From assembly GCF_000209165.1 (NCBI RefSeq), contig NC_009043.1:1116001-1180000 (forward strand): a stretch of 64,000 nt of DNA. Reading direction: 5' to 3'. Of the stretch, positions 21,245-24,091 are shown one piece after another. Made by a program: the position numbers and the translations under genes. Numbering within the stretch: the stretch's first letter is position 1; each line of letters opens with the position of its first letter. The notes under the pieces were generated by a model. The model made no database searches. It was given only the letters and a program-made list of their open reading frames with translations, and was not told where the DNA came from. The stretch comes from Scheffersomyces stipitis CBS 6054 (Eukaryota > Ascomycota > Pichiomycetes > Serinales > Debaryomycetaceae).

Positions 21245-22885
21245 ATGTCTTCTACTTCCAATTTGACTGGGCACAACCGCCTGGTTTCCAACTCGTGGCT
21301 AGAAACTAACAGATATATTCCTTCCCATTCATCTTCTCTGGCCTATAGAAATCCAAATCTACAAGATGGCCCTAGTAGCCAATCTCTGGAGCCAGAGGTA
21401 GCCAGCATTTCCTTGAGGGAAGACCTTCTTTTCAATAGCAATAGGGATGTCAACAGAGTAGCACACTCTCAGATTGGCAGACAAGTAGGCAAGATTCCTT
21501 CAAAGAAATCCCCTGATGGTGATTCTTACCAAGAATGGATAGCTGACGCTCTTGGGTTCTCAAACGAGCTGAAGGTTCTACAATTCGAACACAACAGATC
21601 CCCCAAGGACAAAAGCAGAATGCAGAGAGGGGGAAGAAGTCAAGGGTCCAGAAGCAATAGCCATGGCTCCATCGAGATTGCGGGTCCACTTCTATCTACC
21701 TCTACTTCTAAGGAAGTTATACAATTATTGGCTTCCAGTAAACTTGAACAGGAAGCTCCCAGAACCAGACCTGCCACAATATTGACGGCAAAGGATATTC
21801 TCCAAGCTCCAGGATTGAGAAACGACTTCTACTTGAATTTGGTGAGTTGGTCAAAGATGACTAACAAAGTTTTGGTCGGACTTGGAAGCCACTCATATTT
21901 ATGGGGAGTGGACAATAAAGTGGAAGAAGTCAATTGTATTTCTAAAGAAACCATCACAGCAGTATCTTGTTCTGATTCCGAGTTGGCAATTATAGCTACG
22001 TATGGGGGCCATATATATTTGGTTGATATCGAACATAACACTCTTCGTTCGACATACTACAATAATGGGAAATGTATGTTTTGTTTTGCTTGGGTGCCAA
22101 ACTCCCAGATGTTTCTAGCAGGGGATGAAGATGGAGAAGTATATTCTTTTGAAATAGACAAGAACATGTTCTACGCATTGAGTTTGAAGAACAAAGTCAA
22201 ATGCAATCTGCAACAGATATGTGGTAATTATAAACCTATACCCATTACAATCTAGTACAGGGAAAATACTGACAATACACTAGGAATGGCCATAAATTGC
22301 CAAGGAACGGAGGTTGCTATAGGTGGAAACGATAATCGTTGCTCGTTGTGGCAGCTTCTTCCCACTGCAGAAGTACATTTACGATTCATTCTTCCACACA
22401 ATGCTGCTATCAAGGCAATAGCCTTTTGCCCGTGGACAAGTTCTCTATTGGCTACTGGGGGAGGGAGTAAAGACAGAAAGATTCGCTTCTGGCATACAAA
22501 TAGTGGAACGTTGCTCAAGGAGTTCAGCACTAGTGGCCAGATCACTTCACTAGTATGGTCAAGTTTCCGCAAAGAAATCACTGCTACGTTTGGGTTTGGC
22601 AGCGAGAAGAAGTCGTACCTAATGCAAGTCTACTCATATCCCCTGATGGCTACGCTTGTTGAAGTTCCAGCTACTCTTAACTTGAGAATCCTTTCTTCCA
22701 CACTCAGTCCAGACGGGACCTGTTTGTGTGTTGCAACCAATGATTCTACGATTCGTATTTACAAGCTCTGGGAGAAAACACACAAGTTGGTGAAGTCGCC
22801 CGATTCGCTGGGGTATGGAAGCTACGGGAGCTCACTTATAGATCTACAAGAAGGGGTGGTCAAGCGTGGTGAGACCATCAGATGA
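21245..22885 (+). CDS. AMA1: Meiotic APC/C activator AMA1 (Cdc20/Cdh1 family), one intron
   Basis: A WD40 activator of the anaphase-promoting complex. The coding sequence is 21245-22223 joined to 22284-22885, giving 526 residues. The junction splits a Gly codon (G|GA) and produces QQICGMAINCQGTEVAIGGN, the expected blade sequence. A C-box-like NRYIPSHS lies at about residues 20-27. WD repeats run from about residue 195 to the end. The protein ends in Ile-Arg, the IR tail that docks on the APC. Absence of a Cdh1-type N-terminus and resemblance of the loops favour Ama1. Without splicing, translation stops after ten intron-coded residues at 22255. Saccharomyces AMA1 also carries an internal intron, spliced in meiosis with Mer1. 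Confidence 0.9.
22224..22283 (+). other. AMA1 intron, 60 nt, weak donor and Mer1-element-like word
   Basis: Donor GTAATT (off consensus), branch point TACTGAC at 22267-22273, acceptor TAG at 22281-22283. ATACCCAT at 22238-22245 is one base off the Mer1 intronic enhancer AYACCCUY. The intron contains an in-frame stop (22253-22255). Confidence 0.88.
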
Positions 22886-23224: not shown

Positions 23225-24091
23225 ATGTCTGTTCCGTTAATCAATCGTTCCTTGACTACAATTAGAACCGAGCTCGAGTTCTTGAAGGACTCTGAAGTCA
23301 TCACCGAGGAATTGTACCAAAAGTTGAACCAGAGCCTTCCTGCAAAATTCACCAAGGATATGAACGCTTGGGGTGTAGAGAAGCTCGGCTTAGGTAACAA
23401 CAACAACAACAACAGCACCACTACTGCCACTGATAGAATTGCTGAAGATTTGGCTATGACTACTATTTCAACTCCTTCTCAAATCGAAGCTCCCCCACAC
23501 CCTCCACGCTCAAACTCCACCGCTAAGAATATTGGTTACTGTAAAGTCTTATACGACTACCGTGCACTGGAAGCGGACGACTTGGATCTCAAGAAGGAAG
23601 ACCGTATAGCCATCGTCCAACACTTGTCACCTGACTGGTGGAAAGGATACAAACAAGATTCGTCTCCAGAAAAGGCAGGGGTATTTCCTTCCAATTACGT
23701 AGTGGAGATCACTGAGAAGGAGTTCCAGGACTCTTTCAATAGGGCACCTACTACAGTTCCAGAAAAGGCATCATACAAACCACAAAACAATTTGTATCAG
23801 CAACACCAAATGCCTCCTCCAGATTACGGTTCTCCATATGGACAGCCTCCAGTGCAACACCAACCTTCATATGGTGGATACGCTCAATATCCTCCTCCTT
23901 CAACTAACTACTATCAACCTCCTCCACCTCAGCAACAACCTCAGCAAGTTCAACAAGTTGAGGTTCAACCACAGTCATCGGGAGTTAATGCTCATCCTCA
24001 TTTGAAGAAGTTTGGAAGCAAGTTGGGTAATGCGGCTATCTTTGGTGCCGGTGCCACAATCGGTAGTAATGTGGTCAACTCCATTTTCTAA
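23225..24091 (+). CDS. SH3-domain protein of the LSB1/PIN3 (LSB2) family
   Basis: A 288-residue actin-patch adaptor of the Lsb1/Pin3 type. These bind Las17/WASP through SH3 and modulate actin assembly and, in Saccharomyces, prion induction. The N-terminal helical region (1-55) is followed by a poly-Asn run of six residues (about 59-64). The SH3 domain (about 101-163) has ALYDY-like VLYDYRALEADDLDL, the DWWKGY Trp pair and GVFPSNYV. The rest is Pro/Gln/Tyr-rich with a PPDY motif suitable for Rsp5. The C-terminus, GNAAIFGAGATIGSNVVNSIF, is the family's hydrophobic Gly-rich end. The length exceeds Pin3 (215) because of a longer Q/P-rich stretch. Confidence 0.9.
   Translation: MSVPLINRSLTTIRTELEFLKDSEVITEELYQKLNQSLPAKFTKDMNAWGVEKLGLGNNNNNNSTTTATDRIAEDLAMTTISTPSQIEAPPHPPRSNSTAKNIGYCKVLYDYRALEADDLDLKKEDRIAIVQHLSPDWWKGYKQDSSPEKAGVFPSNYVVEITEKEFQDSFNRAPTTVPEKASYKPQNNLYQQHQMPPPDYGSPYGQPPVQHQPSYGGYAQYPPPSTNYYQPPPPQQQPQQVQQVEVQPQSSGVNAHPHLKKFGSKLGNAAIFGAGATIGSNVVNSIF

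What the first reader, a model, noticed from the sequence alone, without database searches (positions are those of the whole stretch)
22224..22283. AMA1 carries a tiny intron with a weak donor and a Mer1-element-like word
Joining 22223 to 22284 yields a perfect Cdc20/Cdh1-family blade and keeps the frame to an Ile-Arg tail. The donor is GTAATT rather than GTATGT, and ATACCCAT (22238-22245) differs by one base from the Mer1 enhancer AYACCCUY. In Saccharomyces cerevisiae AMA1 splicing is meiosis-specific and Mer1-dependent. If unspliced, the intron's own stop gives a truncated activator. This suggests meiotic splicing control of AMA1 may reach into the CTG clade, or has arisen again there.
Basis: partly seen in the sequence, partly recalled or inferred. 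Interest (0 to 1): 0.75.

Follow-up and report, generated by a model that had tools for sequence, protein, structure and literature searches.

The report
Ancient AMA1 intron, with Mer1 candidate
A CTG-clade yeast carries, inside a meiosis gene, a tiny intron at the same place as distantly related yeasts, and also has a candidate for the splicing activator Mer1 that helps remove this intron in baker's yeast, so this meiotic splicing switch may be older and wider than described.

Summary
In detail: 22224-22283 is a 60-nt intron (GTAATT...TACTGAC...CTAG) in AMA1 of a genome matching Scheffersomyces stipitis CBS 6054; retention stops translation after 336 aa. The word ATACCCAT is present but weak evidence: random introns match this well in 3.5-9.4% of trials, and P0069, which shares the donor pattern GTAAYT, lacks it.

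(1) The intron is old: 13 unspliced exon-1 frames from assembled contigs end just after the same Gly codon, 12 in the CTG-clade part of the tree and one beside Lachancea; Naumovozyma dairenensis shows it as an in-frame insertion. In 10 of 15 such junctions, window included, the donor cannot be GTATGT. (2) A 349-aa gene with one C-terminal KH domain lies between a tyrosine phosphatase and SSB1-RIO2, the neighbourhood I recall for MER1. Four tested meiotic families (SPO22, MER2, HOP2, MND1) gave no match and HFM1 was not seen; these absences are soft.

Most likely: a weak ancestral intron plus an inherited MER1 orthologue. That Mer1 controls splicing here is plausible (about even odds) and untested.

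The parts
21245..22223 (+). AMA1 exon 1 (979 nt; ends after the first base of the Gly327 codon, phase 1)
   Evidence: aligned with Ama1 proteins
21308..21322 (+). NRYIP, C-box-like motif (name of the motif recalled) at residues 22-26
   Evidence: aligned with (D/N/E)R(F/Y/L)IP of relatives
22224..22283 (+). AMA1 intron, 60 nt
   Evidence: same junction in P0001; same place in 13 run-on frames
22224..22229 (+). donor GTAATT, not the consensus GTATGT
   Evidence: donors of relatives
22238..22245 (+). ATACCCAT, one mismatch from the Mer1 enhancer AYACCCUY, 14 intron bases before it
   Evidence: chance 3.5-9.4%
22253..22255 (+). in-frame TAG met if the intron is kept (336-aa product)
22267..22273 (+). 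branch-point-like TACTGAC (consensus TACTAAC recalled)
22280..22283 (+). acceptor CTAG
22284..22885 (+). AMA1 exon 2, rest of the WD40 domain and Ile-Arg tail, with stop
   Evidence: tail aligned; P0001 matches PF24807 CDC20/Fizzy WD40, 276.7 bits

Best explanation
The stretch is a true phase-1 spliceosomal intron of AMA1, present at this codon before the CTG clade and Saccharomycetaceae parted. Shown: junction, shared place and phase, non-consensus donor here and in many relatives, truncation inside the WD40 domain if kept, and a single-KH gene between a tyrosine phosphatase and SSB1-RIO2. Inferred: weak donor and branch point make splicing poor in growing cells, so little full-length activator is made; in meiosis the KH protein, an orthologue of Mer1, binds the ATACCC word close to the donor and helps U1, raising AMA1 splicing. 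Odds of the steps, as my judgement: intron old, 0.95; KH gene is the MER1 orthologue, 0.85; it controls this intron, about 0.5. The confidence given is for the whole chain.
For: Same codon and phase in 13 run-on frames and N. dairenensis, placed by a 51-row tree. 10 of 15 junctions, window included, cannot have GTATGT. The Lachancea-like P0128 can encode an exact AYACCCTY with 17 intron bases before it; the window's word has 14. Nearest folds of its model are hnRNP K and poly(C)-binding KH domains. BUD13, which S. cerevisiae needs for AMA1 splicing by Mer1 (PMC6380292 passage), is present.
Against: No RNA data. The word has one mismatch and is matched by chance in 3.5-9.4% of random introns; it cannot stand in the visible intron part of P0069, P0073 or P0121. 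The exact word AYACCCTY is not enriched in the genome (725+798 against 935+966 backwards). The KH gene found only itself in the protein search and was not compared with a Mer1 sequence. No meiotic promoter motif was seen upstream of either gene. N. dairenensis can have a canonical donor.
Confidence: 0.5

Rival explanations
1. An ordinary ancestral intron, spliced whenever AMA1 is transcribed. If AMA1 is expressed only in meiosis, weak splice signals are tolerated and drift; the word is chance and the KH protein acts elsewhere.
For: The word is within chance (3.5-9.4%) and not strictly conserved (P0069, P0073, P0121). 5 of 15 junctions can have GTATGT, so a weak donor is not required. Even in S. 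cerevisiae 31-32% of AMA1 RNA is spliced without Mer1 (PMC3226532 passage).
Against: The single-KH gene in the MER1 neighbourhood; donors that cannot be GTATGT in 10 of 15 junctions.
Confidence: 0.35
2. The intron is regulated in meiosis, but by another factor or by transcription rate and spliceosome competition, not by the KH protein.
For: The word is imperfect. Splicing of non-ribosomal genes rises when ribosomal-protein genes are repressed (abstract start of PMC6726248, seen in listings).
Against: No positive evidence for another factor here.
Confidence: 0.12
3. The intron was gained separately in the CTG clade and the Mer1-like word arose anew.
For: Frames of several species run through the site unbroken (for example P0008, P0016, P0023, P0026, P0027, P0058), so the intron is not everywhere.
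Against: Same codon and phase in Lachancea-like P0128 and N. dairenensis P0036; losses are the simpler reading.
Confidence: 0.03

Closest known systems
Mer1-activated AMA1 intron of Saccharomyces cerevisiae
   Same: Same gene; intron in the aligned Gly codon (Gly395; the S. cerevisiae intron coordinates are recalled); non-consensus donor (PMC6380292 passages); ATACCC word near the donor.
   Different: Word has one mismatch; intron 60 nt against 93 (recalled); no splicing data; of the other targets HFM1, SPO22 and MER2 none was found here (soft absences).
Mer1, KH-domain splicing activator
   Same: One KH domain near the C-terminus; beside SSB and RIO2, with a tyrosine phosphatase on the other side, as I recall for MER1/SSB2 and PTP1/SSB1.
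   Different: 349 aa against 270 (recalled); no relative found by words; not compared directly.
AMA1 intron of Naumovozyma dairenensis (P0036)
   Same: Same codon and phase; can be read as G|GTATG...TACTAAC...TTAG|G.
   Different: Donor can be canonical and no exact Mer1 element is possible (best one mismatch).

Membership tests
Ama1, meiotic APC/C activator | CDC20/Fizzy WD40 domain | tested here: met
   PF24807 276.7 bits, over its cut-off of 200, in P0001, the public model of this gene
Ama1, meiotic APC/C activator | closest relatives named AMA1 rather than Cdc20 or Cdh1 | tested here: met
   among the best hits are proteins named AMA1 of C. viswanathii, C. maltosa and Spathaspora sp. JA1; S. 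cerevisiae Ama1p at 288 bits, against 175 bits or less for the Cdh1-like hits from P0078 down
Ama1, meiotic APC/C activator | C-box-like motif and Ile-Arg tail | tested here: met
Mer1-dependent intron | non-consensus donor | tested here: met
   GTAATT
Mer1-dependent intron | enhancer AYACCCUY in the intron | tested here: not met
   best is ATACCCAT, one mismatch; so it is not filed as a Mer1-dependent intron, only as possibly working like one
Mer1-dependent intron | splicing rises with Mer1 | not testable with these tools
   no RNA data
Mer1 | single KH domain at the C-terminal side | tested here: met
   PF00013 at 265-335 of 349; KH fold at the C-terminus in a low-confidence single-sequence model
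Mer1 | gene next to SSB and RIO2 | tested here: met
   order PTP - KH - SSB1 - RIO2; the S. cerevisiae order is recalled
Mer1 | sequence similarity to known Mer1 proteins | tested here: inconclusive
   only itself found (the search needs shared 5-residue words); no Mer1 sequence was at hand

The most novel reading that the evidence does not exclude
The Mer1-AMA1 splicing switch dates to the ancestor of the CTG clade and Saccharomycetaceae. In S. stipitis AMA1 is the last recognisable target, and Mer1 and its word have drifted together towards AYACCCAY: a meiotic splicing programme reduced to one activator and one intron.
Probability: 0.3. Interest if true: 0.7.

Novelty: new member of a known kind. 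Interest (0 to 1): 0.52.

Why it matters
Mer1-driven meiotic splicing is known from S. cerevisiae. A 2021 survey (section 6 of PMC8567612, read) names MER1 relatives by synteny in Phaffomycetaceae, Ascoideaceae and Saccharomycopsidaceae; its text does not name the CTG clade, though its figures could not be seen. A MER1 candidate and an AMA1 intron at the shared place in a CTG yeast would make the switch a trait of much of the budding yeasts and offer a small test system: one activator, perhaps one target.

Tried and rejected
Other joins: 31 frame-keeping GT/GC-AG joins were listed; only 22224/22283 restores the conserved block. Other Mer1 targets and meiotic genes: SPO22 PF08631 no match (one control genome rang, below the cut-off), MER2 PF09074 no match (no control rang), HFM1 through Sec63 PF02889: 4 matches in two long frames of 2126 and 1947 aa, which I read from memory as Brr2 and Slh1, HOP2 PF07106 no match (no control rang), MND1 PF03962 no match (one control rang, below the cut-off). 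The control genomes are prokaryotes and the genes diverge fast, so these absences are soft. Exact AYACCCTY is not enriched in the genome. Donor statistics: in 308,675 bases held, 25 strong-donor/TACTAAC pairs against 29 in reversed sequence, so no intron catalogue came of it and 'weak donor' rests on the known consensus and on relatives. Promoter motifs CRCAAAW, GGCGGC and TTACACAAA: none in 600 bases upstream of AMA1 or of the KH gene. Papers: in 10 searches (one search listed 20 of 220) I saw no title on AMA1 splicing or MER1 in the CTG clade; most listed papers I saw only as title and start of abstract. One section of PMC8567612 and passages of PMC8567612, PMC6380292, PMC5648754, PMC8624252 and PMC3226532 were read.

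Full report
WHAT IS THERE. Its contig C3 has 1,841,851 bases, the same as the contig of P0001, 'predicted protein, partial [Scheffersomyces stipitis CBS 6054]', so I take the species to be S. stipitis. AMA1 has exon 1 at 21245-22223, an intron at 22224-22283 and exon 2 at 22284-22885 and codes for 526 aa with table 12. The intron has donor GTAATT, branch-point-like TACTGAC at 22267-22273 and ends in CTAG. If it is kept, translation stops at 22253 after 336 aa, inside the WD40 domain. P0001 uses the same junction; elsewhere in exon 1 it leaves out one stretch and reads another differently from the continuous frame, so it is only a prediction.

THE WORD. ATACCCAT at 22238-22245 is one mismatch from AYACCCUY. 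Random introns of this make-up hold a word this close between donor and branch point in 3.5% (iid) to 9.4% (Markov) of 20,000 trials each, and an exact one in 0.2-0.5%. Alone, the word is a lead.

THE INTRON IS OLD. The search with the spliced protein (468 proteins, best 120 listed) and the one with the unspliced reading (46 proteins) returned 13 proteins from assembled contigs whose frame runs past ...Q(Q/H)(I/V)CG and stops 1 to 31 residues after that Gly: P0069, P0073, P0074, P0076, P0114 and P0121-P0128. Unspliced exon 1 gives just that; the window reads QQICG-NYKPIPITI-stop. N. dairenensis P0036 has 27 extra residues at this place, which can be read as G|GTATG...TACTAAC...TTAG|G. In a tree of 51 chosen rows of the exon-1 part, 12 run-ons fall in a group (support 98/93) that also holds the 11 named CTG-clade rows and the window; P0128 joins Lachancea mirantina (100/99); P0036 lies in the Saccharomycetaceae group (100/100). 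The aligned residue of S. cerevisiae Ama1 is Gly395. I recall its intron in that codon but found no held paper with coordinates, so P0128 and P0036 carry the comparison. Several frames of the same kinds of collections run through the site unbroken (for example P0008, P0016, P0023, P0026, P0027, P0058), so the intron was probably lost repeatedly, provided those collections do not splice, as the run-ons suggest.

DONORS. Assuming G|GT, back-translation of the 15 junctions (window, 13 run-ons, P0036) leaves 10 that cannot be GTATGT: GTAAYT in P0069 and P0125 and GTAATT in the window; GTACNT in P0114 and P0123; GTATHT in P0124 and P0128; GTAART in P0073; GTAARA in P0126; GTAARC in P0127. Five can be GTATGT: P0074, P0076, P0121, P0122, P0036. 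P0074/P0122 and P0126/P0127 are close pairs, so there are fewer lineages than rows. I had no background set of introns for these species.

WORDS IN RELATIVES. Only the part up to the first stop is visible. P0128 can encode an exact AYACCCTY with 17 intron bases before it (6.1% of random tails of its length can); the window's word has 14. P0114 can encode AYACCCAY, the window's variant, with 33. P0122, P0123, P0126, P0127 and P0036 reach one mismatch, as do 55-83% of random tails of their lengths. P0073 and P0121 reach only two, P0069 three. P0074, P0076, P0124 and P0125 are too short to test. So the word is not strictly conserved.

A MER1 CANDIDATE. KH domains in the genome: 16 matches in six open frames. 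One is a 349-aa gene at contig C7:458902-459951 with one KH domain at residues 265-335 (44.2 bits). Its neighbours are a protein tyrosine phosphatase at 457446-458684 (PF00102, 180 bits), an Hsp70 at 460467-462308 whose best solved relative is SSB1 (1154.5 bits) and RIO2 at 462546-463814 on the other strand (588.8 bits); positions. From memory, S. cerevisiae has RIO2 YNL207W, SSB2 YNL209W, MER1 YNL210W, and PTP1 YDL230W beside SSB1 YDL229W; PTP1-MER1-SSB-RIO2 is the order to expect before the genome duplication. My note named the SSB neighbourhood before the locus was read; PTP and RIO2 were recognised afterwards. A single-sequence model is poor as a whole (mean pLDDT 41.3) but gives a KH fold at the C-terminus (blocks of 52-85); its nearest solved folds are KH domains of hnRNP K and poly(C)-binding proteins. 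The protein search found only the gene itself, so orthology rests on place and domain plan. Section 6 of PMC8567612 reports MER1 by synteny in three other distant families; stipitis, CTG, albicans and Debaryomycetaceae do not occur in its main text; its figures could not be seen.

THE REST OF THE REGULON. HFM1 was not seen, nor SPO22, MER2, HOP2 or MND1 by Pfam models; these absences are soft. BUD13 is present (68.4 bits). No meiotic promoter motif was seen upstream of AMA1 or the KH gene.

HOW IT LIKELY WORKS. Shown: intron, junction, truncation if kept, shared place and phase, non-consensus donor, KH gene and neighbours. Inferred: poor U1 recruitment without help, and help from the KH protein in meiosis through the ATACCC word. 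PMC8624252 (passage) describes Mer1 as enhancing U1 recruitment to suboptimal donors. In S. cerevisiae AMA1 goes from 31-32% to 71-72% spliced (PMC3226532 passage), so a partial switch is the model to expect. A constitutive intron with drifted signals remains the main rival.

VERDICT.

Noticed in passing
contig C7:450715-454755 and 455008-456216 (-), loci L030, beside the PTP-KH-SSB1 block: Two long frames that look like a Ty1/copia-type retroelement (reading from memory of such proteins). Described only.
   Followed up: no
proteins P0009, P0012, P0015, P0017, P0018, P0043, P0044, P0053: Annotated AMA1 models of several Candida and Lachancea species have residues added or missing just at this junction, which suggests mis-called versions of the same intron.
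   Followed up: partly
window 23225-24091 (+): An SH3 protein gene follows AMA1; in Candida theae the public model P0012 runs AMA1 into an SH3 protein, so the two genes seem to be neighbours there as well and wrongly fused.
   Followed up: partly
P0001 against window 21245-22223: The public CBS 6054 AMA1 model starts late, leaves out one stretch of exon 1 and reads another differently, although the frame is continuous.
   Followed up: partly
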